Source: Diphasiastrum complanatum | Lineage: Eukaryota; Streptophyta; Lycopodiopsida; Lycopodiales; Lycopodiaceae | DNA length: 64,000 nucleotides | Direction of reading: 5' to 3' | Assembly (NCBI GenBank): GCA_029204225.1 | Contig: CM055100.1 | Coordinates: forward strand, 56,934,239 to 56,998,238 | Program-made: the position numbers and the translations under genes | Notes under the pieces: model-generated | Told to the model about the DNA's origin: nothing | What the model saw: only the letters and a program-made list of their open reading frames with translations | Database searches by the model: none | Shown: positions 6,068 through 54,836 of the stretch, one piece after another | Numbering within the stretch: the stretch's first letter is position 1 | Layout of the letters: every line of letters starts with the position of its first letter

Positions 6068-7285
6068 TTATGTGTAGGCAAAAATTTGAAACATTGAACT
6101 ATGAATATGAAAATATGTGTAGGCAAAAAGCCATGAACTTGAAAATAAGATGGTGCTTCTTTGATAGAGCTTTCGTGAAGTAATCTGCTGCCACCTAGAG
6201 TAAACCAGTGACACTTCCTTGCTTTGCACTTCCTCTCTAAGGTAGTGATACCTGATTTTGATATGTTTGCTCCAAGAATGAAATCTCAGATGTAGAGATA
6301 GCGCGATTGCACTTTGATTGTCACAATAGATTGTGGTTGGATGTGACTGAGCAAGATCGATATCTGCAAATAGGTTTCTTAGCCAAATTGCCTTCTTGGT
6401 AGCATTTGTGACAGCTATGTATTCTGATTCGGTTGATGATAATGCTACTGAGGTCTGCTTTCGGTTATTCCATGAGATTGGTCCTTGATTGAATAAGAAT
6501 ACAAATCCAGAAGTTGATCTTCTGGTATCGATATCTCCTACCCAATCTGCATCTGTGTAACCTTCGCGAATATTGGCAGATTGGCTACCTCCATAACAGA
6601 TGTTGAGATGCTTCGTTGCTTGGACATACTTCATAATCTTCATGAGTGCTTTCCAATGTGTTGGCCTTGGATTTGATAGGAACTTGCTAAGTGAACTGAT
6701 CAAGTATACAAGATCGAGTCGATTGCAGATCATTGCATACATTAGTGACCCAATGATGGAGTGAAATGAATATTGCTTCATTTCCTCATGTTCTGTCTCT
6801 AGTTGAGGAGATTTTTTCTTTGATAGCTTCATATCAGAGTCGAGTGGAAAGTGACTCGATTTGCAGTTGGTCATTCCATATTTGTCCAGCCATGTTGGTG
6901 AGATATCGTTGTTGATTGATGAAAATCTGTCTGCTGGATAGAATTCAAAAATTTGAATTCTGAGACAGTAATGGGCTGGACTTGTATCAGTCATTTTGTA
7001 TTCATGTGCTAGCATGTATTTTGTATCCTTCATTAAATTCAGATTCTTACTGAATAGTAATGTATCATCTACATAAAGAATGATGATAATGAAGGAATTC
7101 GATACAGACTTGAAATAAATGAGTCTGCCAAAGAGCTTGTATGCCTTGTGATATGGGGAATAGCCAATGAAAATCGATTTTTTGCTTGTGTCGTCCAACT
7201 TCTTTCTTAGATCAGCAGGGATATGAGCGTAAGCTTTGAATTCAAACACTCGAATATGTTTGAGTGAAGTTTCGATCTTGTCCAT
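6068..7285 (-). pseudogene. Ty1/copia pol fragment: integrase end fused to RT/RNase H after an internal deletion (Copia-2)
   Basis: A 405-codon frame. Residues ~10-50 are the integrase C-terminal segment (KKSIFIGYSPYHKAYKL). Residues ~51-130 are the second half of the copia reverse transcriptase with the catalytic YVDD (LYVDDTLLFS). Residues ~175-350 cover the connection and RNase H with YTDADW, SSTESEY and CDNQSA. The segment normally between integrase and YVDD, including the QMDVxxAFLNG motif with the first RT aspartate, is missing, yet the frame stays open. The last ~45 codons are frameshifted: the ADxFTKAL tail is encoded in another frame near 6130-6200. Copia-7 (24960-27663) is a close relative that retains the lost RT part. 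Non-functional. Confidence 0.85.
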
Positions 7286-7880
7286 ACCCTAACCTTCCAT
7301 TTCGCGTCTAAAACTGATATCCAAACCCTAAATTTATAAGTTTGTCAGAATCTTTTTTGATATGATTTTTTTTTTGTGAAATTTTTAATTTTGATTCCAA
7401 TTTGTTATCCTTTTTTTTTAAATTTGGTATTAGTGACAATACAGAGTATTTTAAGTTACTTTTTTCTCTTTTTTTTTTCCCTTCTATTACAAAGGGTCTT
7501 GGTGTGAAAGCTTTTTCTGAGATTTATCTCAGATTTAGGTCAAATCTCAAAATAAGGACATGATTCTTTATCAGGACTTGGTGAACCTCGACAGACATAG
7601 TTATAAAGCTAAGCTTGACAGAATGTTCACCAAGTTGCATGATGATTTCAAGTCTGTAGATGATTGTCAAATACACAATAAAAAGTTTAGATTTGTAGAG
7701 TTTCAGTCTACTTATGTTTTTTTTTTCTTTTGTTAAATATTTTTCACTACTTCTGAAGCTGCTTCTTCCAGCGGTAAAAAAGCTGACAAGTCCAAGCTTT
7801 AGATATAGAATCTTTTTTTATTGATATAAGGGCATTATCTAAAGTATAGCAGCAACAGCAATAGAAGCCTCATACTCAAG
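7286..7880. other. No gene recognised; T-rich stretch
   Basis: Long T runs (7360-7480). A 57-codon plus-strand frame (about 7559-7735) beginning MILYQDLVNLDRHSYKAK has protein-like composition but no family I recognise. A second short frame ends SSGKKADKSKL at about 7801. Either could be decayed gag of Copia-3, which begins just downstream, but neither can be assigned. Confidence 0.35.
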
Positions 7881-9842
7881 GTGAGAGTAGTGGATCGCGC
7901 AAGAAGCTCTTCTATAGATAATGCAAGGGAGCTAATCACGACATCAAGAAAAGTCGAATCCACATCTACAACGAAGCAAAGACACAACAACAACAACAGC
8001 CAGATTCCTCCAATGCGGTGGAATTCAAGGAGCAAGATTCACATCTGTTAATGGCTTACAATAGTGGCAACGAAGACCACGATAGCTGGTATATGGACAA
8101 CAACGCTACCCAACACATGGCCTCTCGCAAGGAATGGTTTATCGATTATGCAGCTTATAGCAGAGATCAACTCATCTACCTTGGAGATTCAAGCACCATA
8201 CGTGTGGAAGCAAAGGGATAGTCCAGTCTCTAAGATAACTGATGAGGGCTACACTATTACTTTCTCTTATGAGCAATGCACAATCTTCGATGAAGATACT
8301 ACTCTGACTACATGTACTAGAGTTGGAAATCTAATCTACTCTCTAACTTAGTTGCATTAGCTAGTATCTCTCATGAAAATGTAAACGATAATGCTATTCT
8401 ATGGCATAGTCGATTTGGACACATAAATACAATATCACTTTCCTATATGTGTTGTAATAATCTAGTTGATGGACTGTATTTTTCTTCTTCATTAGATAGG
8501 GAATCTTTCTTTTGTGAATTATGTATCTATGGCAAACACTCTAGAAGCAAACTTCCCAAATCACATTCTGTCAAAACAAAGCATGTATTAGATCTTGTAC
8601 ATTAGTGATCTTTGTGGTCCAATGCCAACTCCATCCTTAGGAGATGCAATTTATTTCACTTTTATAGATGATTATTCTAGACAGTCTATAGTCGTCTTCA
8701 TTAAGCACAAATCAGAAGCCTTTGAATGCTTCAAAAGATTCAAGGCCATGGTTGAGACACAAACATCTACAAAAGTCAAAGCTCTCCAAATTGACGGTGG
8801 CAATGAATACCTCTCTAACGAGATGTCTGACTATCTGGCAGAACATGGCATTCGAAGACAGTTCACAACTTCCTATTATCCTCAACAAAATAGAATTGTA
8901 GAAAGGAAGAATCGAGCAATTCTCAACTCAGCTAGATCCATGCTACATCAAGCGCACCTACCTGCGAAGTTTTGGGCAAAAGCTACTGCCACAACCTGTT
9001 ACATACTTAACAAATCAAGCACTAAAGCCATTAACAACAAAATTCCTTATGAAATATGGCATGGACACAAGCCTAGTGTCAGCCATTTAAAAATCTTTGG
9101 TTGTGTATGTTTTGTTCACATTCCTAAACAACTTAGGAAGAAGGTAGATCATAGGACAAATGAATGTATTTTCATTGACTATCTTGATGAGCATAAAGCT
9201 TACAAAGTTTATGATCCATCCACCAATGTAGCATTTGTCTCTAGGGATGTAATCTTCCAAGAACATACATACTATGATTTTAAACAACCATCAATAAACG
9301 ATGCTATGTCATTTCATCCTATTTTACGTAGCATGGAATCTTCGAACGATAATTTTCTTCTACAGAACCTGCAGCTACAGCTACAGAAGCCGAGAGAAGC
9401 CAACAACACTTATCAAAGCTAGCTCGAGCAGAATCAGATCAATTCAAGAAGAAGCACCATCGGATTTTGGTCAACCAAAAGTTCAAAGATCCTCACGGAC
9501 TCGGACAGTTCTTGAGAGATATACACCTCAATCATTCTGTACTTTATCAGAAGAACCAGAGACCTAGCCGAATCAATGAACTCCAAGGATGCTGTGAAGT
9601 GGCAAGAAGCTATGGAAAGTGAGTACAACTCACTTTTGACAAATCAGACCTGCACACTGGTCAACTTCCCCACTCACAAGAGAGTTATCGAAAACAAGTA
9701 GATCCTCAAGAAGAAGATCAACTATGATGGTTCCATTGCAAAATGAAAATCATGACTGGTGGCTAAAGGATTCTCTCAAATCCAAGGAGTGGATTATCAA
9801 GAAATTTTTAGTCTTGTTGTTAAAATGCAGTCAATTAGGACT
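7881..9842 (+). pseudogene. Ty1/copia gag end - protease - integrase - RT start (Copia-3), cut by Copia-4
   Basis: In order: a decayed zinc knuckle at ~7900-7960 (remnant CKGANHDIKK with cysteines lost); the protease site at 8081-8120, where the usual DSGA/T reads DNNATQHM, so the catalytic Ser-Gly is gone; a gag-pre-integrase segment (LWHSRFGH) at ~8400; integrase in one 275-codon frame at 8595-9422, with the catalytic Asp in SDLCGP, Asp in IDGGNEY and Glu in VERKN all present; then RT N-terminus from ~9570 (WQEAMESEY, VAKGFSQIQGVDYQE) up to 9842. Stop codons at ~8607, ~9702 and ~9747 and frameshifts interrupt it. RT stops at the point where the Copia-4 LTR begins, so that element inserted here. 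Confidence 0.85.
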
Positions 9843-12056: not shown

Positions 12057-12359
12057 ATGGAGATGGATCCCGACAGTCTTGCCAAAGCCTTCGTGGAGCA
12101 CTACTACAGGACCTTCGACACCAACCGCTCTGGCCTGCTCGGCCTCTATCAGGACTCCTCCATGCTCACCTTCGAAGGCCAGAAGATCCAAGGCGCACAG
12201 AATATTGCAGTGAAGCTCACCAGCCTGCCCTTCCAGCATTGCAGCCATCACATCAGCACTGTGGACTGCCAGCCCTCCGGCGCCCCTGGCGGCATGCTGG
12301 TTTTCGTCAGCGGCACCCTGCAGCTGCCAGGCGAAGAGCACCAGCTTAAGTTTAGCCAG
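12057..12359 (+). CDS. NTF2: Nuclear transport factor 2 (NTF2), exon 1
   Basis: Codons 1-101 of a small NTF2-domain protein. NTF2 carries RanGDP from cytoplasm to nucleus by binding it and FG-repeat nucleoporins at the nuclear pore, as a homodimer. The sequence follows plant NTF2 almost residue for residue: AKAFVEHYYRTFDTNRSGL, LYQDSSMLTFEGQKIQG, LPFQHCSHHISTVDCQPSG and MLVFVSGTLQLPGEEHQLKF. The ATG at 12057 gives MEMDPDS; the next Met, two codons on, would match the usual MDPD start exactly, so either may be used. The frame is also open upstream to 11895 but without NTF2 similarity. The exon ends in phase 0 at CAG|GTTAGG (donor GT 12360-12361), precisely where homology to the family stops. 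Exon 2 lies 8.7 kb downstream. GC content is well above that of the flanks. Confidence 0.95.
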
Positions 12360-12619
12360 GTTAGGGCACATTACCTACTCCCTCACAGCTTTTGGTCTTT
12401 GAGTGGCTGTGTTTTTTATTGCAACTTTCTTTTTTTCGGTTTTCTTGTTGCGGTGTCTTTTCACAGCTTTGGTCCTTCTGTGTGTTTCTTTCATTGCAAC
12501 TATTGTTTTTTCTTTCTTTCTTACGGTGTCTTTGTGCTTCTGATGAGGTTGATATTGAAGATTTGTAAGTGTGCAATCATCAATAGATAAGAGGGATGAC
12601 AAGTAACGAAATACAAAAC

Positions 12620-13170
12620 AAAAAAGAAATAAAAAAGAAGGAACAAAGTCCGGTAGGCTGGATCCAGAGCCCTTTGAGAAAACAGTTTGAAAGGGTCTAC
12701 TTTTGTCACATAGCCCCCCCTCAGTGTGAAAGGGGTTTCTGATTTTTGATTAATGAAAAAAGAGGATAAAATCGAAAGGGAGCAGAGGCTATTGGGGTGG
12801 CTCTAGATCCCTTCGGGAAAATGGTTCGAAGGGGTTTACTCTACTGACATAAGCCCCTGCCTTAGTGTGAAAAGGGTTGATGTTTTTTTGATAGCAGTCA
12901 ATGCAAATAAATAAAAAGACAGAAACAGAAACAGAAGAAGGGACAAAGGCCAGTAGGCTGGCTTTAGACGCTTTTTGGAAAACAGATTTGAAGGTTTTAC
13001 TTTTTTCACATAGGCCTGCCTTAGTCTGATAAGGGTTTTTGATATTTTAATAATAGAAGTCAATCAGCAAGCAGAAATAACAAAATAGAAAAAAGAAAGA
13101 AGTGACAAGGGCCGTTAGATCCTGTCTGGATAACAGGTTGAAAGAGTTTACTTTTCTCTCCCAGGCTTTT
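12620..13170. repeat. Diverged ~140-160-bp tandem repeat, four units, in NTF2 intron
   Basis: A block with the order gtaggctggat...gagccctttg...aaaacagtttgaaagggt...tcacatag.cc...tcagtgtgaaaggggtt recurs at about 12652, 12791, 12951 and (truncated) 13113. Copies differ by many substitutions and small indels. An A-rich purine stretch (aaaaaagaaataaaaaagaagg and similar) precedes each unit. Confidence 0.8.
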
Positions 13171-13738
13171 GATTATTTTCTTGAAAAAGCAAGAATATCT
13201 TGTGAGAAATGCTGTCCATCCATTGACACTGTGCTGCTTTTAATCACCATTAAGTGAATAGGTAGAAACACAACCTAAATGGGTATATGCTTCCAAGTGC
13301 TCACATCATTGTCCCAATGTTGTCTATTGCTACATTCTCTAAATTGCAATCTCACATGCTGGTTTAAACCTTTTTCTGGTTATCAAGAAAAATGAAGGAA
13401 AATCTTGGTTCCATTATCTTTTAACAAGAAAACCCCATAGGATATACAATTAGTGTCCATTTTGGCCGATTTATGGATATTAGTCTTAACGATTACTACT
13501 TTCCATTCAATAGTGTTGCTAATTATGCAAGCTCATGAGACCTCTCCTACTTAAACATTTTTGTCCCCGAAAATGGATAGGTGAATTTTGAATTGTCTTA
13601 GTAGTCGATCTTTATTTAGTTGAATTAGGGTTGCTGTCACACTTAATGAATAGTAGTTTCACAAATTTTGTCTCTCTCAAAATCCCTAGAAGATGACCAG
13701 CAGAGACATTGATGACCTACAATTTTGTAAGTTCAAAG
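13171..13738. other. Intron sequence, nothing recognised
   Basis: AT-rich, no frame with a known domain and no repeat seen. It ends with the 8-bp target site gttcaaag (13731-13738) of hAT-1. Confidence 0.5.
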
Positions 13739-14001
13739 CATAGTTGCACTGCGTTTCAGAAACGCGTTTTGGAAATATGGAATTTTTTTCCAGAAACGTT
13801 TTTTAATTTTTTTTTTTTTTGGTTTTTTTTTTGTGCAATATGGGTATCAGGTGAAAGCTCTAATTAAGAGCATGATTACTATGTATTTTGCCGAACGTTT
13901 CGGGTGCAGGATGGTCTAGTTTAGGTGCATTAACTCCTAGGTTTACGCTTTAACTCCCAGGTGCATTAATAAAAAAACATGATGCCCCAAAATTTAACTC
14001 C

Positions 14002-14005
<4 letters not shown>

Positions 14006-14050
<45 letters not shown>
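14006..14050. repeat. (CT)n microsatellite
   Basis: Uninterrupted CT dinucleotides of about 45 bp inside hAT-1, after cctctg. Confidence 0.95.
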
Positions 14051-14055
<5 letters not shown>

Positions 14056-14200
14056 CTCTCTCAGATCCAACAAACTAAACAAAAATGCTGAATCGTGCTA
14101 AACAAAAACCATGCTAAGTGTTCTAAACCATTCACCATACTGCATCGTCCTGAACCGTACTGAAGCATTTTTCAACCATATGGAATCGTTTTTCAACCAT

Positions 14201-14201
14201 A

Positions 14202-14246
<45 letters not shown>
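14201..14246. repeat. (CT)n microsatellite
   Basis: A second CT tract of about 45 bp, one interruption (cgc), inside hAT-1. Confidence 0.95.
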
Positions 14247-14249
<3 letters not shown>

Positions 14250-14367
14250 GAACAGTACTGAATCATTACACTGCTATGAATAGGATCATCGTAATATATA
14301 ATATTGGGCCACATGGCACCAAAATGGAGTACAATGATGTTCCATGAACATAATGAAAACTACACAA

Positions 14368-15666
14368 CTAAGGCTCGTCAAAGTCATGGTAGGAACCATC
14401 ATCTGAATCTGTGCCTGACTGCAGATCCCAAGGGTCTGTAGATGAATCAGAACTGGAGGGAGCCATATGCCGTGGTGTGGCCCTGGCTCTGCCGTGTGCT
14501 CTGGCTCTCTGTTGTGTGCTCTGGCTCTGGATCCTCCCCCTGCCTCTCCCTCTGCCTCTGCCTCTCTCCCCTCCTTTGCCCCCACTCTGCCTGCCCCCAC
14601 CCTTGTGTGTACCCCTGCGTGTCTGTGTGTCAAGTGACTGTGATCCAATGCCCTGGGATGGCCCTACCCACTGTGATGATGCCTAGCCGACGACTGCCTG
14701 TGATGCTCCACTCCTGTGACGCTCTCCCCTCTGAAGTAAGCCTTGCTGCTGCGGTTTAGTACACCTAAACCCTGCCAAGAACGTGCTGTACTAGGCTCTG
14801 CACCCGTAGTAGGCCGTGCCTGCATACCTGTGACCCCTGCCTGTGAACCTGCAGCTGCGCCTGCCCCCTGTCCCTGTCCCTGTCCAGAAACCTGTGATGC
14901 AGCACCCTGTCTCTGTCCCAGTCCCTGTCCCTATAAAGAAACCTGTGATGCAGCACCGTGCCCGTACGTAATAGACAACCTCTGTCTCTCCTCATCTGAA
15001 ATCCTGGGGCAATCAGATATGCCCAATGCCCGCCCACCCGGCCCTCTGACCCTCAGTAAGTGAGCCCTAACCCTAGTAAGTGATCATGTGAAGAGACCAC
15101 CACAATGCAAGCATCTCCATCTACGGACTCCCAAGCCATGGCGTGTAGCCACATCCCCCTCAGTAAGCTCAACCTTGCCCCAAAGGCCTCGGCCCTGCAC
15201 CGACATCGTGTCCACACGAGATTAAACCTGCGAACAAAAACAAGCAAACAACCGTTCAGTAGAAGAAAACACACTGCATTGAAAAACTTTACCAACCTAA
15301 AACAGAGCTGAACACATCCGAGCATGCGTCACATTGATTCTAGCAAGATCATAGCAACTGCCAAAAAACACACGAGACATGGCGAGGGATAGAATAATTT
15401 CAGTGCGAGCGAAAACGGACGACTGACGCTAGCATGGGAGTCCTTGCAGGCGTCTATGAGTCCAGTGCAGGCCTAAACCACGCTACTGGCGAATGCTTGC
15501 ATGATGCTCTAACCCTAAACCCTAAAAAACATGGAATTAGGGCAACAAAATTGAAATTTGTGCAACGGACGTAGACGGGCAGAACGGAGGTCACAGGAGT
15601 CTGTGCGGGCATGTGGAAATGCACTCTAGGCTCAGACACCACCTGAATCGGTTGCCCAGAAGCCAT
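14368..15666 (-). pseudogene. Degenerate low-complexity coding region inside hAT-1
   Basis: On the minus strand an ATG at 15664-15666 opens MASGQPIQVV. Further on, a Gly/Gln/Ala-rich segment (GQGQGAGAAAGSQ) and an Arg/Gly/Glu-rich segment precede an acidic Ser/Asp tail (SGTDSDDGSYHDFDEP, in another frame) ending in a TAG at 14368-14370. The pieces are in different frames, so the region is either an intron-containing gene or a broken one. Low-complexity linkers and acidic C-terminal tails occur in plant hAT transposases, but the conserved catalytic and dimerisation blocks are not visible, so the assignment is a guess. It could also be a captured host gene fragment. Confidence 0.25.
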
Positions 15667-16183
15667 TTTCTGAAAATGGCAAAAAAAAAAAAGCATTTGG
15701 ATTGTGGTGTTCAAATCTCGCAAGGTGTGCCGTAATGGTTGAAACTGCCCCGTAGGAATCACCGTGGGCATGAAGAAAGGTGGTCTAGAGCCAAACTGCG
15801 CTTGATTTGGTTGCCTACAGTTCAATGTCAACACTTGCAAAAAAACAAGCCTACACTTACCAAAAATCGAAAACTGATCGTTTCGATCTCCACGAAGCTC
15901 AGATCCCCCTGGCACCGTGCACACCACCTCCGTATCGCTGAGTAGATGCCTATCGACTATCCACACGCCAAGATCCGATGCCTACAGCTCAAAACAAAAA
16001 AAATTAACACCTCCACGGCTGGCGCGATTCTGGCCGTGAAGAGGTGTTCAAAAATTTTTATTTACTATTTGTTTTAAAAAACGTTTTTGGAACGATTTTG
16101 GGCTGAGAATCGCGTTTCTCAAAAACGCGATTTCCGAAACGCTCAACCCCAGAATCACGTTTCGGTGCAACTATGGTTCAAAG

Positions 16184-16607
16184 CATAGATGCAGCAAATC
16201 GTGATCTGCTTCATCTCTGTTTTGGACTGGGGAAAGCTGTATGGATCACATATTGTTTTCTCTTGAAGGAATGGTTGGACTTTTTTTGATAGTTTTTTTT
16301 AGGTTTTTTAAAGAGTGGACTTATTTTTTTGATAGATATGTCATGTGCTGCGTGCAATTAGCCCATGAGCTTACTAAATATTATGTTTTTGTTTAGTTTT
16401 TGACCAATTAATCTTCATTTTTGTGTGATTTCTTTCTTTAGATCAGTAGCTCTTCCTCTTAGCTTTCTGGAGGTAGTGCATTTTCTTGATTTGGAGCTAA
16501 TGACCAAGTTATGGCCATTTTAGTGAATTCATTCCAATTTAATTTTTTTGTATTCTTCATTTTGAAGTTTCGATTTATAAAAAAAATTATTTTTTGCCAC
16601 ATGTGAG
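16184..16607. other. Intron sequence, nothing recognised
   Basis: T-rich intron sequence between hAT-1 and the ATTACTCGC array. No open frame with a known domain. Confidence 0.5.
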
Positions 16608-17115
16608 ACCATTACCTACGCCTACTATAAATAGTAATTCCATTACTCGCCATTTGAGGTGATTACTCATGCATACTATGAATGGTAATTCCATTACTCA
16701 CTATTTGAGGTGATTACTCGCACTAGCTATGAATAGTAAATCATTACTTGCCACACGTGCGAAACCATTTCTCGTGCCCTACTATGAATAGACATTTTTT
16801 GCCCATTACTTGCCTTGCTATTTATAGCCATTTTTTGCACATTACTTGCTGTTATTATTTTTTGCACTGAAGCCATTACTCGCCACCTGCTATTATCGCA
16901 ATTACTCGCACTTCATTTTTGGAAAGTCATTACTCGCCTGTCATGTTTTGCCATTACTTGTGCTTTGTATTTTTGAAAAGTCATTACTCGCATGTGATTT
17001 TTCGCCATTATTCGCGCTTACTATTTTGGGCTACTTTTCGCACCTGCTATTTTTGGAAAGTTATTACTTGCCTATTTTTCACGTCTACTAATTCGGGTCA
17101 TTTCTCGCCTGTGCT
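16608..17115. repeat. Degenerate ATTACTCGC-type array in NTF2 intron
   Basis: The word ccattactcgc and close variants (attacttgc, attactcac, attattcgc, atttctcgc) recur roughly every 20-50 bases. The left part shows at least two units of ~51 bp containing actat(a/g)aatagtaattccattactc...tttgaggtgattactc (starting near 16624 and 16675) and a partial third near 16728. The right part is shorter and more scrambled, alternating with ctatttttggaaagt. Confidence 0.75.
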
Positions 17116-18305
17116 CGGGAAAAATTTTGTTTTCGACATTTTTCATTTTTTTTTTACGAGCTCTTTGATTTTATTACGAGCACTTGGAGAGTTCACCAAG
17201 GTGATTGTTTAAAAAATTTGTCGTAAATTTTGTGATTTTTCTCGGTCCCTACAGAATTGCTAAGAGCACACAAATGTCCATGGAATCCAGGATATTATCA
17301 AATTCAATTTGAGGGACCCTTAGCGAATTTTCTTTTCGTTACTATTTTGTCAACTGCTATAACTTTCTTGTTTGAGCTCGGATTTCAGTACAGTGAAAAG
17401 CAAAAGTAATCAGTATGTCGAGTTTGACACTGTGCAATCAATTGTATTTTTATAATTATTATTTCATTTTAATGATTTTAGCCCGTTCTTGCTAAGTTGT
17501 TGAGTTTTACATTTCATATTCTATTTGAACTATCATATTTTCTCCGTTTGAGCCCGAATTTCGGTGCCATAAAAAAAAAGCAAAATTCATTAGCTCAACA
17601 AGATGGACAGTGTAGAAGTCTTATTAATATCCAAAATTTGACCTCTTCGCAAGTTTTGTATTACTCTAACACATTGTGAAAAATGCAAAAATAAGCTTGG
17701 TAGAGGCCAAAAATCTTGTATATAGATAAACACACATGTGTGGAGCCTGTTCCCACGTGTGAAAATAGTGTACTTGTCATGTGCCATAATCATATAGGTT
17801 GTACATATGATTTAATTCAAGTTCTAGTGGCTAAAAAGGCCAAAAACTAGTTTTCTAGACATATGACATCTATTGATTGCATGAGCCACATCCTTTGGTT
17901 AGGTGTCATATCCCATGTGTAGAGGACAGCTCACATGTGTGGAATAAGCTGAAGTAGGCGAATTTTGACTTCTAGAAGATTTCCAAGTAGATCTCCATAT
18001 AGAAGGAAAATGGACCAAAAGTGCTCAAAATAGAAGGTTTTGTCCAAGTGTCAGTTTTGCATGATGAATCATCATATGACAAAGCACCTTTACACATGTG
18101 GGATCATAGGGATGATCAGTACCACGAGCTCCCACTTATTGTATATATAGAGCCACATTTGGCCATAATCAATGTGAGACACCAATCTTGGTTTTGGAAG
18201 CAATTTTGAGTGATTCTCTCCATTTGTTTACATTTGAAAACGAAACAAAACTAACTGTAAAGATCGCGCACAAGAGGGATATGTTGGTAAAGAAACCCAG
18301 CTCCT
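17116..18305. other. Intron sequence, no gene; repeated CACATGTG/CACGTGTG palindromes
   Basis: No coding similarity. The words cacatgtgtgg, cccacgtgtga, cacatgtgtgg and acacatgtggg occur at about 17732, 17753, 17933 and 18092. Similar words recur in Copia-12 LTRs and near Copia-13, which suggests that part of this stretch derives from a related LTR. Confidence 0.4.
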
Positions 18306-18844
18306 TGAAATCTTCCCTAGACCTCAAGTTTTGTCTTCGTAACTCTTCTTGAAGTAGCAAACCATTGAGGTCGTCGAATGTCGGCGATCTCTCGCTCAAA
18401 CTCAATGTCATAACAAAGTTTTAATATTGAAAATGGTAAGCTGTTCAAAACAATTTGTACAAGAGTATTGTCAAGTACAATTTCCCCTATCGAAGACAAC
18501 TGATCTCTTAGATCCTTCACCCTGGTAATAAAATCCGTAATGGATTCTTCTGATTCCATTTTCAAGGTATAAAGTTTATTATTCAAGAAAAAAGCTCGAG
18601 CCTTGCTCACCGTTTCATATATATTCCTAAGAATATCCCATGCATCCTTAGGACTAACCGCATTCTTGATCAAAGGAATAACCTTCACGGATAAATTGAT
18701 GATATGGTTTGCACGCTGTACCCGCTTCTCAAATATCCTTCTATCTTGATCATTGAGACCGTGAGCCATCACCTCGTCCCGTGACAATTTCCCAATAATC
18801 TCTGTCCTGAAGTTTGAACTTCCACAAGCTATAGTTAGATCCAT
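18306..18844 (-). pseudogene. Ty1/copia gag fragment (Copia-5)
   Basis: The frame 18317-18844 encodes typical copia gag: DAWDILRNIYETVSKARAFF, LYTLKMESEESITDFITRVK, DLRDQLSSIG and LVQIVLNSLPFS. A frameshift leads to PTFDDLNGLLLQEELRRQN in the adjoining frame down to ~18306. The nucleocapsid, protease and pol are absent, so the element is truncated on its 3' side. It is antisense to NTF2. Confidence 0.85.
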
Positions 18845-18949
18845 CTAACTTGCTTGATTCCTGTAAAGTAGATTTATGCAGACTCCCCATCGTTGTCTTA
18901 CAAAAAATGATAGCATTTTTAATATAATCGCATGCAACAATTTATTAAT

Positions 18950-19500
18950 TGTCGCCTTCCCTGGATAGCACCTGTCCAGATACTACCTGCCTCAGATTTG
19001 CCTGTCTGCTGTCTCAGATAAAACCTGTCTGGTTCTGACCTGAATCTGATCTGATCTCCCTCAGATAACACCTATCTGATCTCTGCCTGTACCAGATAGA
19101 ACCTGTCTGGTTCTGACCTGTCCAAGTTCTGCCGCTCTCAGATAACACCTATCTGATTGCTACCTGTCCCAAATAGAACCTGTCTGGTTCTGATCTGACC
19201 TGTGCCTGTCCTCAGACGACACTGATCTCAGTTGTTGCCTCCTTTGCTGCAGATATAACCTGCACCAGTTGCTGCCTCCACCTGAACTGCCTACGCCAGA
19301 TGCTGTCTCCACCAGAACTGCCTGCGCAGATCTGCCTGTCCTCAGAAGTCACCTGCAGCAAATCCTCAGGTAAAGCCTGTCCTGGAAACTGCCTGCAACA
19401 GATCTGCTTAGATACTGCTGCCCTCAGGTAAAGCCTGTACCTGTCGCTATCTTCACCAGATGTGACCTGCACCAACACCTTCTAGGGTAGATCCCGATCT
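18950..19500 (-). repeat. Copia-5 leader with internal direct repeats
   Basis: This is the region between primer-binding site and gag. It is rich in the words cagata-acctgtctggttctgacctg. A longer unit, ctcagataacacctatctgat...cagatagaacctgtctgg, occurs at ~19050 and ~19137 with a partial copy at ~19012. A second group of caccag/cctgc words fills 19250-19480. Confidence 0.75.
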
Positions 19501-19522
19501 CAGGAACCCTGCTCTGATACCA

Positions 19523-19905
19523 TGATAGAATTCACAAATCGTAGTAGACTAATCTTATTAGTACTCACACAACATCATCACAATCTGAAGAAGAGAGACT
19601 GCAAGAAGTTATGCTTCATAAACTGAAAACTGAGATGACAATGGAGGTGGGCGCCCATCTGCTCTTATAGAGACTGCCCACGCTCAAAAGCAAAAGCTAT
19701 TCTTCTACTATAGCAATTGGAATGCTAAATATGAAGTCTTAACAATAGTAATCTTTGCTATCTTAGTTAAAATAGGTTTCTATACTATTGTAGCAAAATT
19801 GGTACTTATACTAGAGATAGAAGTACCTATACTTCAAACAAAAATAGGCCTTCTAGCACGCAGGCTGGCCTCTACAATGAATTAATTAACCATTAATTCC
19901 TAACA
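19523..19905 (-). repeat. 5' LTR of Copia-5
   Basis: The 383 bp begin TGATAG and end CTAACA on the plus strand. The adjacent 19511-19522, gctctgatacca, is a perfect minus-strand primer-binding site for initiator tRNA-Met, which fixes the inner LTR border. The outer border touches the Copia-6 leader (19906), so Copia-5 inserted into Copia-6. Confidence 0.8.
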
Positions 19906-20131
19906 AGACTTCGTAGTCTCCTCATGCAACACAGCTTGTAACGTTGAATCTCCTTTGAGTCCTTTCACGATGCTGCCACCCACCCTTTTAGATGAAAATT
20001 GAAATTGAGAGCTGGCTAGGGACACCATCTACACACCTCGAAGATGGTCGAATCAATCTGCATATGATGATTGGTCCCGTTCGTTGAGTACCTCCTTGTT
20101 CTCTCGAATCTTAAACCACGCTCTAATACTA
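19906..20131 (-). mobile_element. Copia-6 leader fragment
   Basis: It lies between the Copia-5 LTR and the Copia-6 LTR. It ends with a mutated primer-binding site (gctctaatacta, 20120-20131) beside the LTR. No coding part of Copia-6 was found. Confidence 0.6.
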
Positions 20132-20580
20132 TGTTAGAAAACTGACTTGTTCATAACAAGCAACCAAGATAAGATTCATATTGTTGTTAGACAATAGCCA
20201 TACACATACATGGAAGAGAGCACAAACAATGATGACGGAACGATAAGAGATGTACTCCCAACTATGTCCCATTGCAAATGGACTAGGGTGCACTACTACA
20301 TACTTATAGACAATAGTCTATGCAAAAAAGCAAAAGCAAAAGCAAAAGAATTGCTAATTAATGTCTTTATGTAAGGTAAAAGCCCCCAACATCTATTTAT
20401 AGCAAAACTTGTGCTCCAAATCAAGCACTAGAAGCTCAAACTTGAGTCTAATTAAATTCTAACTTGACTTACTAAATATAGATAGAGGCCCCTAGAATTA
20501 GCACGCAGGCATGGCCTAATAATCTTAATTAATCATAGATGACAACATTAGGGGTAACAATGTAAACATTCCCTCTAACA
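20132..20580 (-). repeat. 5' LTR of Copia-6
   Basis: The 449 bp have TGTTAG...CTAACA ends. Both this and the Copia-5 LTR contain gcacgcaggc-tggcct and runs of gcaaaagcaaaag-type words, which suggests that they are distant relatives of one family. Confidence 0.75.
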
Positions 20581-21049
20581 CATGCAACCCCATACATGCT
20601 AGAGCCACCTCTAGTCATAACTAATGCAACTCATCATGCATATAGATGTGACACAGCATGTCATGGTTCCTTGAAAGTCGAGATTAGTTGGAATCACCTT
20701 CTTTATCTAGCCCATACTGAGGAGGCATTTTTTGCCCATCTGGGTAGCATCGCGGTTCGAAGAATGTAGGAAATTTGTCTATTGTTCCAGTTTTTCCCTC
20801 GTAAATACTTCAAATATAACAAATTTTGACCACTTCTCCAGTACATGCAGTCCATGGTATTATGTTCCTGCTTTTAGGCTTTGCATTAGTGGTTGTTGAG
20901 ATACTTCAGAGTTCTTAGTGTTGTAGATTCAAGAAGCTTAACGTTGATATGTGCATCAATGTTACGCTACCTCAACCTGTTTTCCAATCATTTTAGAACT
21001 TTGTGATAACCTTTTTAGTTGTTGATGGCATGTGTGTGAATGTGTGCAG
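20581..21049. other. 3' end of the NTF2 intron, nothing recognised
   Basis: Unique-looking AT-rich intron sequence up to the acceptor tgtgtgcag. Confidence 0.5.
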
Positions 21050-21121
21050 ATGTTTCACCTTATACCTGCGCAGGGGAGCTTTTTCGTTTTCAACGATATC
21101 TTCCGGCTCAACTATGCTTGA
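21050..21121 (+). CDS. NTF2: Nuclear transport factor 2 (NTF2), exon 2
   Basis: Codons 102-124: a 23-residue C-terminus beginning MFHLIPAQGSFFVFNDIF and ending LNYA, then TGA at 21119-21121. This is the conserved end of plant NTF2, the last strand of the NTF2 fold. It begins right after an AG acceptor, in phase 0, and continues exactly where exon 1 stops at KFSQ. The joined product is 124 residues, the usual length for the family (about 123), so no exon is missing in between. A possible poly(A) signal, aataaa, lies ~610 bases downstream (21733-21738). Too short to appear as an obvious open frame, so easily missed. Confidence 0.93.
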   Translation: MFHLIPAQGSFFVFNDIFRLNYA

Positions 21122-31857: not shown

Positions 31858-34800
31858 TCAATCCATGAATGCCTTGACCTTTAAACTTATTTCTGCAGAA
31901 AACTTCTTGTGTGCAGCCAAGCTTAATGTTTTAGTAAAAGTATCTGCTGTCATATCTTGCATTCGACAGTACTGCAATCTGACCTCTTTGTTGAGAACTT
32001 TGCTTCTGACATAGTGATACTTAAATTCAATGTGCTTAAACCTAGAATGAAATCTAGGTTGGCTGACAAGGCAATGGCACTTTGATTATCACAAAATAAT
32101 AATGTTGGAGCATATTGACTCAGACTGATATATGAAAGTAAGCTTCACCCAGATCGGTCATGTTGAATTCAGAGGATAGCATTGTCTTAGCTTCTTTTAT
32201 CAAATATTGTTGCTGAAGAGCAATGTGTCATCCACCTATAAAGTGATAATGGTAAAAGACTACTGCACTATCTTGAAGTAAACATTCAAGTCTGAAGAGC
32301 TTGGTGTATAGCCATGATCAATAAGGAAAGTATTGATTTTTTGAAACCACGCTCGAGTAGATTACTTCAAGCCATAAAGTGCCTTATGGAGTTTACACAC
32401 ATCATTGTGTTTACCTTGGATAATATAACTTTTGGGTTGCACCATGTAAATGTCTTCTTCGATAACTCCATTGAGATATGATGTTTGTACATCCATTTGA
32501 TGTATTTCCAAGTCTGCTACAACAACAAATGATAATAAAAGTTGAATAGAAGAACTCTTGACTACTGGACCGTAGGTCTCACTGTAATCGACGTTGTATA
32601 CTTGAGAAAATCCTCTGGCGACAAGTCGAGCTTTCTTTTTGTCGATGCTTCCGTCCGCTTTGTACTTGACTTTGAAAATCCATCTACAATCAACTACGTT
32701 TCTGCTAGCAGCTAATTCGACAATCGTCCATGTCTGGTTCTTGATAAGAGATGAATACTCTTTATCCATAGCTTCTTTCTAGAGATCGAAATCGGGCTGA
32801 CTGAGTGCCTCTTCGACAGTCGGCTCCTAAACAAGATAGGCTATAGACTCGTCAATATACCTGATAGGTGGTCTGCTAGTTCTTGATGATCTTCTGGGAA
32901 ATAGAGGAAGTTGATTACTTTCATCATGCTGCAGTTGTCATCATCTTCGGATTCGTCATTGATATGTTGTTCATCGAAAGTAGATGAACTTGGACCTTCG
33001 ACAGGAATAGTCAACTGAGGAACTGGGAAGTTCAATGTGTCGGATGAAATCGAAGAGTCAACTATATGGGCTTTGTCTTTTCCCTTGAGGTCAATAAACT
33101 GATCTTTGATGAAGATGACATCCCGATTAACGATTATCTTCGACTCGATAGGATCGAACATTTTGTAGGTTTGATATGAAGTAGTGTAGCTGATGAAAAT
33201 ACATTTGATGCTCTGGAAGTCGAGCTTCTTCCCGAGATCATGAGGAATCTGTGCATAAGCGATACATCCAAAAACTCATAAGTTTGATAAAGAAGGTTTG
33301 GTACCTGTCCAAATTTCGAATGGTGTTTTGTTTGAGAGACCTTTAGTAGGACATTTGTTCTGAATATAGGTTGTTGTTGAAACAGTTTCAGCCCAGAAGG
33401 ACTTCAGAAGTGTCGCTTGTGATAACATGCACTTTGCTGATTTGACTAATGTTCTATTCTTTCTCTCAACAAGATCATTTGACTGAGGCGAATAGGAGGT
33501 AATGTATTGTTGCTCAATGCCGTCATTAAGGCAGTACTCCTTGAATTTAGTGGAGATGTATTCTCCAGGCCGTTATTGGATCTCAGTGCTTTGATTTGTT
33601 TACCAGTCTAATTTTCTACATGCTCTTTGAATTATCTGAATTTGATGAAAGCTTGTGACTTCTATTTAATGAAGTAAACAACTGTTCTTTTGGAAAATCC
33701 GTCAATAAATGTAATAAAATACTTTGCATCTAGTAATGAAGGAGTTTGCATAGGTCCACATATATATGTATGAACAACAACTAACAGACCTTTTGCTACA
33801 TGTCTATAGCTCGATCTAAAAGGAATCCTAGTCTGCTTCCCAAAGATGTAGCTATGGCAAACAGGGACATCGACTTTACCAGAAGGATAGTCGAGATCAA
33901 GTACTAAGGATTGTCTGGACATGTTTGAAACAGATGCATAATTCAAGTGTCCTAAGCGAGTATGCCATTATAATGCTTTATTGACAAGAACAAAGGTTTT
34001 CAAAGCTTGACTAGAATCAGAATAACAATGTGCCAATCTATATAAGTATCCATGCCTCTTGCCGAGTGCAAGGATCTTATTACTCCTATCGATAATTTTG
34101 CATTGGTCAGATTCAAACTCCACCCTATGACCTAAATCCGTGATTCTACTTACTGATAACATATTTGTAGATAGTTTAGGAACATACAAGACTTTTGACA
34201 GTAGTTTGAATTGATCATGCAGGAACCTTAATCTTAAAATACCTTCACCGTCGATAGTGTGAGTGCTATCGTCACCAAGATGAACATACTTCTTTGTGTT
34301 GTAAGGCGTACATGATTGGAAAATTTCACGATGATTGGTCATATGTTGAGTAGCTTCGGAATCTAGAAACCACGAATCATTTGAATTCGCGTATTTGTCT
34401 TTGACTATAAAAGCGCCTTTGTCCATTTCGACTTCAGGAGATGCTGTAACTATATTTGCTTGGTGATCTGATTGCTTGGTTGCATTCTTCGCTTTGAGAA
34501 TTCGGCAATCTTGGATATCATGGTTATTGTGTTTGCAAGACCTGCAAAACATCTTCTTCTTTGACGAATGTGGATTTGATGATTGTTCTTGACCTTGAGT
34601 CTGTTTCCGATTTGATGTAGACTACTTGGAGCTTTTCTGCTTCTATCATTTCAAGCTCTTGTTGACATACAGAGCATGAGACGAAGAGGTAGACGAAGTG
34701 TCTTGACTTCTTCAATTATCTTCTTGCAGCAACATAGTGATAACTCTGGTAAGAGTTAAATCTGAGTGTGTCATGATGATCATCACCCAGTTCTCATATG

Positions 34801-35270
34801 TAGAGGGTAGACTTGAAGGTAATGTCATAATTGCATCTTGATCATCTATGACTGATCCGACAACGACCATCTATTGCAAGAGATTCTTAAACTGGTTAAT
34901 AGGATTCTTTATAGAATCATTATTCGACATCTTGAGTGTGAAGAATTTTCTTCGAAGATGTAACTTAGTGGTTACATCTCTCACATCATATAGTGAGCTC
35001 AAGATCTTCCAAACTTTCTTCAAAGTTCTGGCTTTAGCTACGCGGCCAATCTGAGTGTCTGATATATTGAGGATAATAAGCGCAAAAGCTTTACCATCCT
35101 TTGACTTCCATTTCGAGTCGTATGTGTCATCTTCAGGCTTCACTTTGATATTTGTAACAACATCCCACACCTCATTGGCGATTAGCAAGGTCTTCATCTT
35201 AAATTTCCATAAATGATAATTGGATCCATTCACCTTCTTTGATAAGACCGACTTTACTTTGAGAATCCAT
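31858..35270 (-). pseudogene. Copia-9 gag-pol, multiply broken
   Basis: Gag at ~34871-35270 (NGSNYHLWKFKMKTLL, LSSLYDVRDVTTKLHLRRKF). A zinc knuckle at ~34510-34550 (CRSCKHNNHDIQDC, CX2CX4HX4C). Protease at ~34350-34380 reads DSEATQHM instead of DSGA/T. Gag-pre-integrase and integrase start at 33662-33946; here the first catalytic aspartate, normally in D-L/I-CGP, reads YICGP. The integrase remainder at 33160-33650 is in pieces. RT at 32362-32769 has KARLVARGFSQ and QMDVQTSYLNG. The YVDD region is at ~32230 with stops. Then RNase H begins only at CDNQSA (~32095), so the YTDADW...STEAEY half is deleted. The tail ADTFTKTLS ends at a TGA at 31858-31860. Not functional. Confidence 0.85.
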
Positions 35271-35449
35271 CTGGAACTTTAGATTGTGGATGATTCGATT
35301 GTAGTTAAGAGAAAGATATAGTGCTGTGGAAATCAATTCTTTGATACCAAAACAAATTGATTGGAACTGAAGAATAATTTGATATCGCAAAAGATACCAA
35401 GCATAAAAGTAATAGTATTAGGCCTTGAAGAATCAATGCTCTGATACCA

Positions 35450-38893: not shown

Positions 38894-39385
38894 TGTTGGA
38901 GTTTAATCTTACTCCTACTCTTCCTAATTGCCCTCCTTTCTCTCAATTTTACTCTCTCAAATGAAACCTGCAAAAAATGAACTGTTTTTCAACAGTTTGC
39001 ATATTTGAATTGATTGTCATTACAGTCTGCATTTTTACTCGGGTTTTTCCACAGGCAAAAAACCCGACACCCGACACTATTGCCATTTTACCTTCAGGCC
39101 ATCTTGACTAACTAAGTGTTTTGCAACACTGATCCTAAATTGGTTTTTAGGCTATTTAGGCACGTTCAGAAATGCGACACTATTTTGCAAAAAATGTGAC
39201 ACTACATTTTTCCTCGCATTTTCTGAGAGGCGACAATGTGCAAAAAACCGACTTTGCATTTTTACATGCAGTTTATGACAGGCGACAATTTGCAAAAAAA
39301 CGACACTACATTTTTACATGCAGTTTATGACAGGCGACACTTTGCAAAAAAAGACGACATTGTAGTTTTAGGCAGGATTCTGCAC
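38894..39385 (+). repeat. Truncated 3' LTR of Copia-8
   Basis: It follows the polypurine tract taagagggag (38884-38893) and starts TGTTGGAGTTTAATC. It aligns with the first ~490 bp of the 5' LTR including the ~52-bp repeat array (about 39170-39350). Homology stops near 39385, where Copia-10 gag begins without any LTR. Confidence 0.85.
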
Positions 39386-39883
39386 AGGCAAAAACCCGAG
39401 AAACCAGCCACAAAATGTGGAAAAGGCTACAAGCCAAACATGAGAAAATGTCAAGTGCAGAGATCTTGCATCTCAATAACCAACTTTTGAACATGAAGTG
39501 GGACGGCAATGATCTAGACAAGCATGCTAGGAAGATGAAGGCCATCTTTGATCAACTGGAAGCTGCAAATCATAATCATGCTATTCCACCGGAGCAACAG
39601 TTCTTACATTTCATAAGAACTCTACTATCCTCCTACTACAACATGAGGTCAATACTCATGAAGACACCTAATATGACATTCAGTGATGTTGTTAAAGCTA
39701 TAGCAGATGAAGTCATCATTAGAGATCATACTAATTGTCAAGACAGCGGAGACCAAGCATCTTTTGTCAGAAAAAAGCATAAAGAAAAAGCCCAGAAGCA
39801 AAGCCCATCTTCAACCAAGCAAGAACGCAGCTCAAGGCCGCTTGTGGTATGCAATTACTGCAAGAAGAAAGGACACTTGGAGA
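39386..39883 (+). pseudogene. Copia-10 gag, broken inside the zinc knuckle by Copia-11
   Basis: Frame 39415-39890: copia gag with EILHLNNQLLNMKW, HARKMKAIFDQLEAAN and FLHFIRTLLSSYYNM, a basic linker, then CNYCKKKGH, the first three ligands of a CX2CX4HX4C knuckle. The TG of the Copia-11 LTR begins right after ggaga at 39879-39883. The knuckle's last cysteine is found at 45455 onward. The 5' end (LTR, leader, gag start) of Copia-10 is missing against the Copia-8 LTR. Confidence 0.88.
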
Positions 39884-40147
39884 TGTTAGAAATCAATGGT
39901 AAACTTCATTGTTAATGTTTATGATATACATTAATATTGACAGTTGTTACCAGCTGTATTAGTCGTAGGCTAGTCTATTAGTCTATTCGTAGGTTTTCTC
40001 TCTCTATCAGGGTTCTGGGTTTATATGTACATTTTATATTCAGTATGATTGTAGTGTGATAGTGTGATATTGTGTGTTCTTCTTCTGCCTCCCTACTTGG
40101 TGATTGCTTATGGTGAATGCTTGATGTTGCATATCTGATTCTTGACA
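39884..40147 (+). repeat. 5' LTR of Copia-11
   Basis: 264 bp, TGTTAGAAATC...ATTCTTGACA. One of the shortest LTRs in the window. Confidence 0.92.
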
Positions 40148-41050: not shown

Positions 41051-44000
41051 TGGCAACTCTAAGTGAGAGTGTCCTCAATTAGTCAAGCAAATTGGAAGGA
41101 GCCGGCAACTATGCAGTTTTTAAATTCAAACTGAAGAACATTTTGATAGAAAAGGAGCTATGGGAGATCGTGACAGGTGAAGAGACAAGGCCATTGATTG
41201 AAGAAGATCAACGGGCATTTGACAGAAGAAAACGAAAATCACAGAATGTCATCAACTTATCAGTTAGAGATGCAATTATTGCCTACATTTCGGATTCAGA
41301 AGGACCAAAAGAAGCATGGGATACATTGAAGGCATTGTTTGAGACCACAAACACATCTCGAGTGCTATTCTTGAAGACGACGCTGCACACATTGCGGATG
41401 GATGATGGTGCAACTGTTGCTAATCACCTACTAAAGATCAAAGAGATTCGTGACCAATTAGCAGCAGTTGGAGAGCGAGTACAAGATCGTGAGATCGTGT
41501 AGTTGACATTGAATAGTTTGAGTGAGTCACATCAGATGTTTGTGACAAGTATAGCCACACCGGAAAATCTTCCAACCTATGAAGAGTTAGGTGGATTGCT
41601 TTTGCAGGAAGAACAACGTCAAGAGAACTTGAGTCATTGCAACAGGGAATTTGATCAAGCTCTTGCAGTCCGGGGACGTGGTGGTAGATTTGGTCGTGGA
41701 AGACACCAATCAAGAGGTGGAAACTCAAATAGTGGATCATTCCAACAATTTCAAGAACAATCCAATGATGGCCCAAATCGAGGCAATTGGAATCAAGGCC
41801 AAAGATGCGGCTATTCCAAGCAAAATAAACTTGAAAATTGTAGGTATTGCAACAAATCTGGCCACTGGGAGTGTGAATGCTTCAAGAAACAGAAGGAGAT
41901 GGAACAAAGAAAAGACAAAGGGCAAGTGGAAAATTATGTTGATCAACATCAATTTGATGATTATTATTATGAAACCAATTATACTGATCAACATCAATAC
42001 GATGATGATCAATATGAAGATGATACAGGTGAGAGCTCAAAATTGTTCATTACAGCATTAATGACAAGTAATGAAACCATGATACTTGGTACATTGATAG
42101 TGGTGCATCCAAGCACATGACTTCAAGGAAAGAGTGGTTTTCAGAACTCAAGGAAACTCACAATGGTGATGAAGTTGGACAAGCCGATGGCAAATTGCTA
42201 TCTGTTAAAGGAGTTGGAGTGGTATCAGTGAAGTTAGCTAGCGGGAAGATAAAGCGGATAAGCAATGTGCAATATGTACCTGGCTTAGCTAACAATCTAC
42301 TATTTGTTGGGACGATGGCTGATCAACAACTCAAGGTTGATTTTGACAGCGACAAATGTCTTGTCAAAGACATCAAGAATCACTACAAAGTGATTGCTAT
42401 AGGAGCTAGAGTCAACGGGAATCGACTCTACAAATTGAATGCGAGATCTTTTGCTCAAGCTATGGTAAGAACGGTTGATAGTCAAAGTGATCTTTGGCAT
42501 CAATGATTTGGTCATATTAGTGCTCAAAGTTTATAGATTCTCAAAAGAGGTAATCTGGTTATAGGATTGCTTGATATTTCTTTTGAAGATAAAATTTGTG
42601 AAGGTTGCATTTTGCGAAAACAAAACAGAGAGAGGTTTCCCAAAAGTGGAGCAAGGAGAGCCAGTGGCATTCTAGATCTTGTCCACATTGATCTATGTGG
42701 ACCTATGCAAACTAGATCTCTTAGTGGCTACTATTACTTTATCACCTTCATTGATGATTATAGCATATGCATTTGGATTTATTTCATAAGCAAGTAATCA
42801 GATGCTTTTGCTAAGTTCAAGGAATTCAAGGCATTAGTTGAAAAGCAAACAGGATGTTGCATCAAAACTTTGAGATCTGATGGAGGTGGTGAGTATTTTT
42901 TGACAAAATTTATTGATTCTTGCAAAGATCAAGGGATCAAGAGGCAGACTACAACACCTTATTCACCACAGCAAAATGGAGTTGCAGAACAATAGAACAG
43001 ATCTATTGTTGAGATGGCCAGGGCGATGCTCAAAAGCAAGGGTCTGCCAAACACCTTTTGGGCAGAAGCTTGTAGCACAGCTACGCACATCCTGAATCGG
43101 TGTCCTACAAAATCCGTGGAGGTAAGACACCTCATGAAGCTGTTATTGGAAAGAAACCTAATATTTCTCATTTGAGAGTATTTGGTTGTGATGCTTATGC
43201 TCATATTCCTAATGAGAAACAAAGGAAATTGGTTGCAAAAGCTATCAAGTGTATTTTCCTTGGATATGATGAGAAGGCCAAGGCATACAAGATGTATGAC
43301 ACAAATGCACAGAAGCTTGTAATTTCTAGGGATGCTACGTTTGACGAGATGGGCCAAGGTGAACAATCTGAAGTAATCACTGAACCTTTTGATGCGGGAG
43401 CGAAAGTACAGGTCAAGAAGGAAGTGGATTTTGATATAGAAAATCCATTGGACAAAGGCAAGCCTGATGCTGAAATTCCCAAGAGAGTACCTAGATGGTA
43501 CTTATCAGTCACAGATGGTGCAAAGAAGGGAGATACTCCCAAATCTAGTGAGTAGGGAGAGCTTAGAAGATCAAGTAGAAATAAAAAATCTCCTGCAAGA
43601 TTAGAGATGAATCTAGTCCTAATGGGATCCATCTTAACGACTCAAGAACCTAAAACTTTCAACGAAACAAAGGAGCACAAGGAGTGGCGTGTAGCTATAG
43701 AAACAGAAATGGAGGCTATATCGAAGAACAAAACGTGGGACTTGGTTGAGCTACCTGATGATAAGACGCCTATCACATGTAAGTGGATCTACAAGACGAA
43801 GTATGAAGCGGATGGGCAACTCAACAAGTACAAGGCATGATTAGTTGCAAGAGGTTTTGAGCAGCAGGAAGGTATAGACTTTGAGGAGACCTTTGCACCT
43901 GTAGCCAAAATGGTAACTATTCGTTCTATCATTGCAATTTCTGCTTTCTATGCTTGGAAAATCCAGCAAATGGACGTCAAATTTGCTTTTCTTAATGGAG

Positions 44001-48799: not shown

Positions 48800-49060
48800 G
48801 CCTACAGTGTTCCTAGTCTGAGCCTCGACCATTTTCATGATGATGATAAAGAGTACCTTGTTTGATGATTCTGCTTGTTCGTTACAGCATGGATAATAGG
48901 GCATACCTTTTCGATGGACAACTATATATGAAGATAACGAGTGATGGTTTCATTTAGGACATGGGTATGACAATCACTCACAAGCTCCAAGGGGCAGCCA
49001 AAATGGATGAGGATGGTTTCATACACTCTTTAGCTTTGACACATTTGGTTAGGTAGTCTG
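48800..49060 (-). pseudogene. Ty3/gypsy integrase core remnant (Gypsy-3, distal part)
   Basis: Minus strand: DYLTKCVKAKECMKP, then HFGCPLELVSDCHTHVLNET in another frame, the integrase segment of gypsy elements around the second catalytic aspartate (consensus FGxPxxIVSDRGTHF). The part further on (VCPIIHA) corresponds to the YYPQANGQ region. It continues across Copia-12 into 55492-56290. Confidence 0.75.
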
Positions 49061-54824: not shown

Positions 54825-54836
54825 GCTCTGATACCA

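What the first reader, a model, noticed from the sequence alone, without database searches (positions are those of the whole stretch)
12057..21121. A 124-residue NTF2 gene stretched over 9 kb by a repeat-filled intron
Exon 1 (303 bp) and exon 2 (72 bp) join in phase 0 into a full-length plant NTF2, yet 8,690 bp lie between them. The intron holds a hAT-like element, two copia fragments and two tandem-repeat arrays. NTF2 is a housekeeping import factor, so splicing must tolerate this load if the gene is active. Exon 2 encodes only 23 residues and would be missed by frame-based annotation.
Basis: partly seen in the sequence, partly recalled or inferred. Interest (0 to 1): 0.7.

Follow-up and report, generated by a model that had tools for sequence, protein, structure and literature searches.

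The report
Plant NTF2 gene with transposon-swollen intron
A normal-looking plant gene for a small nuclear import factor is split by an 8.7 kb intron that grew mainly because several mobile elements landed in it, an ordinary kind of event in large plant genomes.

Summary
Exons 12057-12359 and 21050-21121 join in phase 0 across a GT-AG intron of 8,690 bp into a 124-residue NTF2 (PF02136, 130.5 bits). The exon-2 match (45.4 bits) exceeds all 100 shuffles (best 21.9). A paralogue on another chromosome has its intron at the same place, only 671 bp long. A near-identical second copy of the locus on the same contig, probably the other allele or an assembly duplicate, has an 8,671 bp intron and one synonymous CDS difference. 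The first ~1.4 kb is essentially single-copy, as expected for an old intron filled from inside. The frame looks constrained. 'Housekeeping, so it must tolerate this load' is weakened by the second, short-intron NTF2 locus; expression was not testable. Long gaps between exons occur in other genes here, and TE-lengthened introns are documented in ferns and gymnosperms. A sound gene model; an ordinary case.

The parts
12057..12359 (+). NTF2 exon 1, codons 1-101
   Evidence: translation; Pfam NTF2 on the spliced protein; same protein in the second C9 copy
12360..21049 (+). spliceosomal intron, 8,690 bp, GT-AG, phase 0
   Evidence: same position in C11 paralogue with 671 bp, and 8,671 bp in the second C9 copy
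12360..13738 (+). first stretch of intron, essentially single-copy; holds degenerate ~150-bp repeats
   Evidence: query 12360-13740: full-length matches only in the two C9 copies, 4 other matches of 45-70 bp; repeats
13739..16174 (.). non-autonomous hAT element, internally deleted; TSD GTTCAAAG at 13731-13738 and 16175-16182; TIR CATAGTTGCAC
16175..17674 (.). unassigned stretch with 51-54 bp minisatellite-like arrays (16622-17027)
   Evidence: no copy other than the C9 pair among the 40 scored of 3,545 candidates, so a repeat origin is not excluded; a search of this stretch alone did not complete
17675..18236 (+). truncated piece of a very high-copy LTR-like repeat beginning TGTGAAAAATG
   Evidence: 38 copies outside the C9 pair at 96-98% identity among 40 scored; three fetched copies share the left edge and run on at the right where the window copy stops
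18284..19905 (-). copia fragment 1, antisense: LTR 19523-19905, tRNA-primer site 19511-19522, leader with 77-/31-bp repeats, gag (18317-18844), no pol seen
   Evidence: PF14223 1.4e-20; primer site; LTR ends; left edge at query 104-105 in many copies; repeats
19906..20580 (-). copia fragment 2, antisense: LTR 20132-20580 (TGTTAGA...TCTAACA), degenerate primer site 20120-20131, leader remnant; copia 1 abuts it
Evidence: main genome matches at 79-85%, nearly all ending at query 644-670.
20581..21049 (+). last stretch of intron, no repeat match seen beyond the C9 pair
   Evidence: where only 40 of 2,077 candidates were scored and copia 2 took them; a search of this stretch alone did not complete
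21050..21121 (+). NTF2 exon 2, 23 codons plus TGA
   Evidence: one synonymous difference between the C9 copies, at CDS position 351

Best explanation
This is an intact, probably functional plant NTF2 gene whose intron within the coding region, at a position shared with a paralogue, was lengthened from inside by successive mobile-element insertions: two abutting, perhaps nested, copia elements in antisense (now truncated), a high-copy LTR-like element (truncated), and a hAT element that left a perfect 8-bp duplication. The intron ends, which carry the splicing signals, were not hit. The intron is most likely removed by ordinary spliceosomal splicing, giving a 375-nt coding sequence for a Ran-GDP import factor. 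Shown: gene model, intron position and lengths, element identities. Inferred: that the gene is transcribed and spliced, the protein's function (from its family), the order of insertions, and that the intron has no function of its own.
For: Full-length NTF2 domain across the junction. Same phase-0 intron position in the C11 paralogue with 671 bp. Coding constraint against C11: 102 of 122 aligned residues identical; of 90 nucleotide differences 64 fall at third codon positions; 52 synonymous against 20 nonsynonymous differing codons of 122; dN 0.10, dS not computable by NG86. Second C9 copy: one synonymous CDS difference, 43 mismatches in 8,627 aligned intron bases. hAT: 8-bp duplication and terminal repeats in the window copy and 8-bp duplications in 4 of 4 relatives fetched for this (L070-L073). 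A 4.5 kb relative (L070) encodes Dimer_Tnp_hAT, 2.7e-7, in a ~2.1 kb part that the window copy lacks. Copia: PF14223 in fragment 1, primer sites. First 1.4 kb single-copy.
Against: No RNA was available, so transcription and splicing are not shown. The donor CCAG|GTTAGG departs from the common GTAAGT (recalled). The protein is one codon shorter in exon 2 than C11 (HLIP-AQGSF against HLIPTPQGSF), though yeast NTF2 aligns there without a gap. A fifth hAT relative, in the second C9 region, showed no 8-bp duplication. Whether constraint was relaxed recently could not be measured because dS is saturated. That the last 469 bp is single-copy is not established (one search scored 40 of 2,077 candidates).
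Confidence: 0.88

Rival explanations
1. The C9 locus is a recently silenced copy: the intron filled with elements because the gene is no longer expressed, and the C11 locus supplies NTF2.
For: A second NTF2 locus with a 671 bp intron exists; C9 carries a one-codon deletion and changes in exon 2 relative to C11.
Against: The frame is open in both C9 copies, splice sites are intact and the only CDS difference between them is synonymous. Differences from C11 are concentrated at third positions (64 of 90). The intron elements are in both copies, so they predate their split, with no decay of the CDS since.
Confidence: 0.08
2. Exon 1 is spliced to a different, closer last exon, or ends in the intron, and exon 2 at 21050 is a relic.
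For: Four AATAAA motifs in sense in the intron; exon 1 frame stays open to 12590.
Against: No other good exon-2-like sequence in the window; exon 2 keeps frame, stop and acceptor in both C9 copies.
Confidence: 0.03
3. The 8.7 kb spacing is an assembly artefact.
For: The assembly holds several near-identical duplicate segments.
Against: The C9 partner region has the same order of parts and 8,671 bp; the hAT element has an exact target duplication.
Confidence: 0.01

Closest known systems
Transposon-lengthened introns of large plant genomes (Ceratopteris richardii, PMC9477723; gymnosperms, PMC9364684; passages of both seen)
   Same: Intron lengthened by mobile-element insertion between conserved exons; copia elements among those named for gymnosperm long introns
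   Different: None of kind; the host is probably a clubmoss (inferred), and a hAT element is the largest single piece
Nuclear transport factor 2 (yeast 1gy7; plant NTF2)
   Same: Whole-length PF02136 match; aligns end to end with yeast NTF2
   Different: One residue shorter in the exon-2 loop than the C11 paralogue
hAT DNA transposons, non-autonomous derivatives
   Same: 8-bp target duplication, terminal repeats, a relative with the hAT dimerisation domain
   Different: Window copy lacks the part that holds that domain

Membership tests
NTF2 (PF02136) | full NTF2 domain above the curated cut-off | tested here: met
   130.5 bits against 21, positions 2-116 of 116
NTF2 (PF02136) | small single-domain protein, not a G3BP-type protein | tested here: met
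   124 aa, of which 9-121 are the domain; the six genome matches outside the C9 pair and C11 are 34-42% identical to it, G3BP-like by recall
NTF2 (PF02136) | binds Ran-GDP and FG repeats | not testable with these tools
   needs protein
hAT transposon | 8-bp target site duplication | tested here: met
   GTTCAAAG on both sides; 4 of 4 relatives fetched for this have one; a fifth, in the second C9 region, had none
hAT transposon | terminal inverted repeats | tested here: met
   CATAGTTGCAC at both ends
hAT transposon | hAT transposase in the family | tested here: met
   PF05699 at 2.7e-7 in relative L070; three other L070 frames and a typed L072 frame gave no Pfam match; that part is absent from the window copy
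Ty1/copia (fragment 1) | copia-type gag and tRNA primer site next to an LTR | tested here: met
   PF14223 1.4e-20; primer site at 19511
Ty1/copia (fragment 2) | copia-type coding piece | tested here: inconclusive
   only LTR, degenerate primer site and leader; no frame of 70 aa or more lies within 19906-20580
Ty1/copia (both fragments) | pol with integrase before reverse transcriptase | tested here: inconclusive
   no pol match in the 9 frames of 70 aa or more that start between 16828 and 19634; consistent with truncated remnants, which cannot show it
TE-lengthened intron | same position, shorter intron in a homologue | tested here: met
   C11 paralogue, 671 bp; orthologues in relatives not available

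The most novel reading that the evidence does not exclude
The long, element-rich intron has acquired a regulatory role: slow or conditional splicing (for example through methylation of the elements) makes the C9 NTF2 a regulated copy, while the short-intron C11 copy provides the constant supply.
Probability: 0.04. Interest if true: 0.45.

Novelty: new member of a known kind. Interest (0 to 1): 0.13.

Why it matters
It is a clean, checkable example of intron growth with a built-in control (a paralogue with a 671 bp intron at the same position), and a warning for annotation: a 23-codon last exon 8.7 kb away is easily lost. It does not change what is known about introns or NTF2.

Tried and rejected
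Recursive splicing: no strict ratchet site (pyrimidine tract plus AGGTRAG) in the intron; 8 loose YAGGTR sites, of which two, at 19367 and 19425 inside the copia 1 leader, read CTCAGGTAA and were not examined further. A closer exon 2: none with a good score. A processed NTF2 copy: none among 9 PF02136 matches, 18 of 18 candidates scored. Origin: 23 contigs of 42-102 Mb plus one of 10.9 Mb, 1.74 Gb in all, fit the clubmoss Diphasiastrum complanatum (n = 23, recalled). Two paper searches did not confirm the number and the genome paper (PMC10823260, seen only as a reference) is not held, so this stays an inference. Pfam scans of a 329-residue L072 frame, of L070:5387-6067 and of two more L070 frames found nothing. 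A 14-3-3 search for more intron lengths did not complete. Searches of 20581-21049 alone and of 16175-17674 alone did not complete. Orthologous introns could not be compared: the genome has no relatives in the collection. Structure prediction was not used.
Full report
Observation. The joined protein is 124 residues and matches Pfam NTF2 over 2-116 of 116 positions, and yeast NTF2 (1gy7) from end to end without a gap. Exon 2 is not a chance match: 45.4 bits, against a best of 21.9 in 100 two-base block shuffles. The next best window hits are E 0.088 for the window's own peptide and E 0.036 for a peptide altered toward the usual plant form; the second lies upstream of exon 1.

Copies in the genome. 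A search of the whole genome (1.74 Gb, 5,176 contigs) for PF02136 gave 9 matches. Three are true NTF2 first exons: the window, a copy at C9:43.716 Mb in the opposite orientation, and C11:30.173 Mb. The other six are NTF2 domains of 34-42% identity to the window protein, of the G3BP kind by recall. None is an intronless NTF2. The C9 partner matches the window at 99.3% over the first 33.7 kb and at 97.6-99.2% in three further blocks of 1.5, 12.0 and 8.5 kb, the last reaching the window end; 33694-35380 and 48807-55490 have no such collinear block (in which pieces of 300 bp or less were dropped). Its intron is 8,671 bp, with 43 mismatches in 8,627 aligned bases and 12 gaps, and its CDS has one synonymous change. 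Other pairs in this assembly (C5 with unplaced contig C1714 at 99.4% over 8.3 kb; two places on C12 at 99.98% over 8.9 kb; further equal-scoring pairs) make allelic or duplicate assembly segments the likely cause. I did not prove it.

The control. The C11 paralogue has an intron at exactly the same codon boundary (FSQ|MFHL), only 671 bp long. The two proteins share 102 of 122 aligned residues. Of the 90 nucleotide differences in 122 aligned codons, 16, 10 and 64 are at codon positions 1, 2 and 3; dN is 0.10 and dS could not be computed (saturated). The C9 gene therefore evolved under constraint for most of the time since the two split.

What fills the intron. The query 12360-13740 matches at full length only the C9 pair, plus four matches of 45-70 bp. 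A hAT element occupies 13739-16174, with target duplication GTTCAAAG and terminal repeats CATAGTTGCAC. The search for it met 4,916 first-look candidates, of which 40 were scored; the 38 outside the C9 pair are 88-96% identical in their main piece. In four relatives fetched with flanks (L070-L073), 4 of 4 have an 8-bp duplication. One more relative, in the second C9 region, had none. L070 is 4.5 kb and encodes the hAT dimerisation domain (PF05699, 2.7e-7) in a part of about 2.1 kb that the window copy lacks, so the window copy is a deletion derivative. The stretch 16175-17674 has 51-54 bp repeats and stays unassigned; one search scored only 40 of 3,545 candidates, so a repeat origin there is not excluded. 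Three fetched copies share its left edge but continue at the right, where the window copy is cut. From 18284 to 19905 lies an antisense copia fragment: LTR, primer site, repeat-bearing leader and gag (PF14223, 1.4e-20). It abuts the leader of a second antisense remnant with its LTR at 20132-20580, which has no coding piece to confirm copia. Pfam found no pol in the nine frames of 70 aa or more between 16828 and 19882. The last 469 bp showed no repeat match, but one search scored 40 of 2,077 candidates and a search of that stretch alone did not complete. The four pieces sum to 5,295 of 8,690 bp, 61%.

Mechanism. The pattern is that of an old intron filled from inside. The donor end stays single-copy (the acceptor end probably too), elements accumulate between, and both copia pieces lie antisense, the orientation in which an LTR's own poly(A) signal does not cut the host transcript (established knowledge, not tested here). 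Splicing by the ordinary spliceosome is inferred; no RNA could be examined.

Is it unusual? In the same genome an actin-family search shows classical actin exons about 0.2-0.5 kb apart, but matches that probably belong to single actin-related genes 4.1 kb apart (C8:17459964 to 17464039), 8.8 kb apart (C10:63656714 to 63665490, profile positions 253 to 366, so possibly more than one intron) and 30.8 kb apart (C23:41256320 to 41287117, likewise). That is a handful of genes, not a genome-wide distribution. In print, Ceratopteris has a mean intron of 5,555 bp and 17,745 introns over 10 kb, attributed to transposon insertion, with no correlation of gene length and expression (PMC9477723, passages). 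Gymnosperm long introns are reviewed in PMC9364684 (passages), and the tree fern Alsophila averages 11.46 times the intron length of Arabidopsis (PMC9122828, passages). By contrast the quillwort Isoetes sinensis averages 426 bp (PMC10541799, passages), so long introns are not general in lycophytes. The finding is a correct gene model and an ordinary case of intron growth.

'Housekeeping, so splicing must tolerate this load' assumes this is the only NTF2 gene; the C11 locus makes that unsafe. The proposed check, RNA across 12359|21050, is right and remains the decisive one.

Corrected: 102 of 122 (not 123) residues; the exon-2 runner-up hits; the single-copy claim for the last 469 bp; the copia pol test, now inconclusive after a further Pfam scan; the loose splice sites.

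Noticed in passing
window 49061-55494: A copia-like element with an open 1,322-residue frame on the minus strand (49711-53679) and end repeats 99.5% identical (3 mismatches in 658). The second C9 copy has the empty site with a single GTCTG where the window has one on each side, so the insertion is recent and differs between the two copies.
   Followed up: partly
C9:43.655-43.740 Mb (L009, L010, L018-L024) against the window: An inverted near-identical copy of the window region 13 Mb away on the same contig; probably an allele or assembly duplicate. Equal-scoring pairs between chromosomes and small contigs recur in the assembly.
   Followed up: partly
L011 (C11:30164000-30173500), minus strand: The C11 NTF2 has an in-frame upstream ATG that would add about 16 residues (MDFPEPQAVDPFPTQV) before the usual start of the protein (read by eye); real extension or upstream exon not decided.
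   Followed up: no
window 17675-18236; L074-L076: A very abundant, 96-98% conserved LTR-like repeat of this genome, starting TGTGAAAAATG and at least 0.8 kb long in three other copies; the element it belongs to was not identified.
   Followed up: partly
L072 (C7:8553000-8562999), about 4.25-4.54 kb: A long CT microsatellite run inside a hAT relative, expanded compared with the window copy.
   Followed up: no
window 6071-7288, 8592-9419, 33971-34621, 39331-39912, 43841-44398, 47448-47957, 57398-58054: Retroelement coding pieces on both sides of the gene: 7 of 9 flanking frames scanned match gag, integrase, reverse transcriptase or related Pfam models (two frames, 41503-42117 and 44402-44998, gave no match), so NTF2 sits in copia-dense DNA.
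   Followed up: partly
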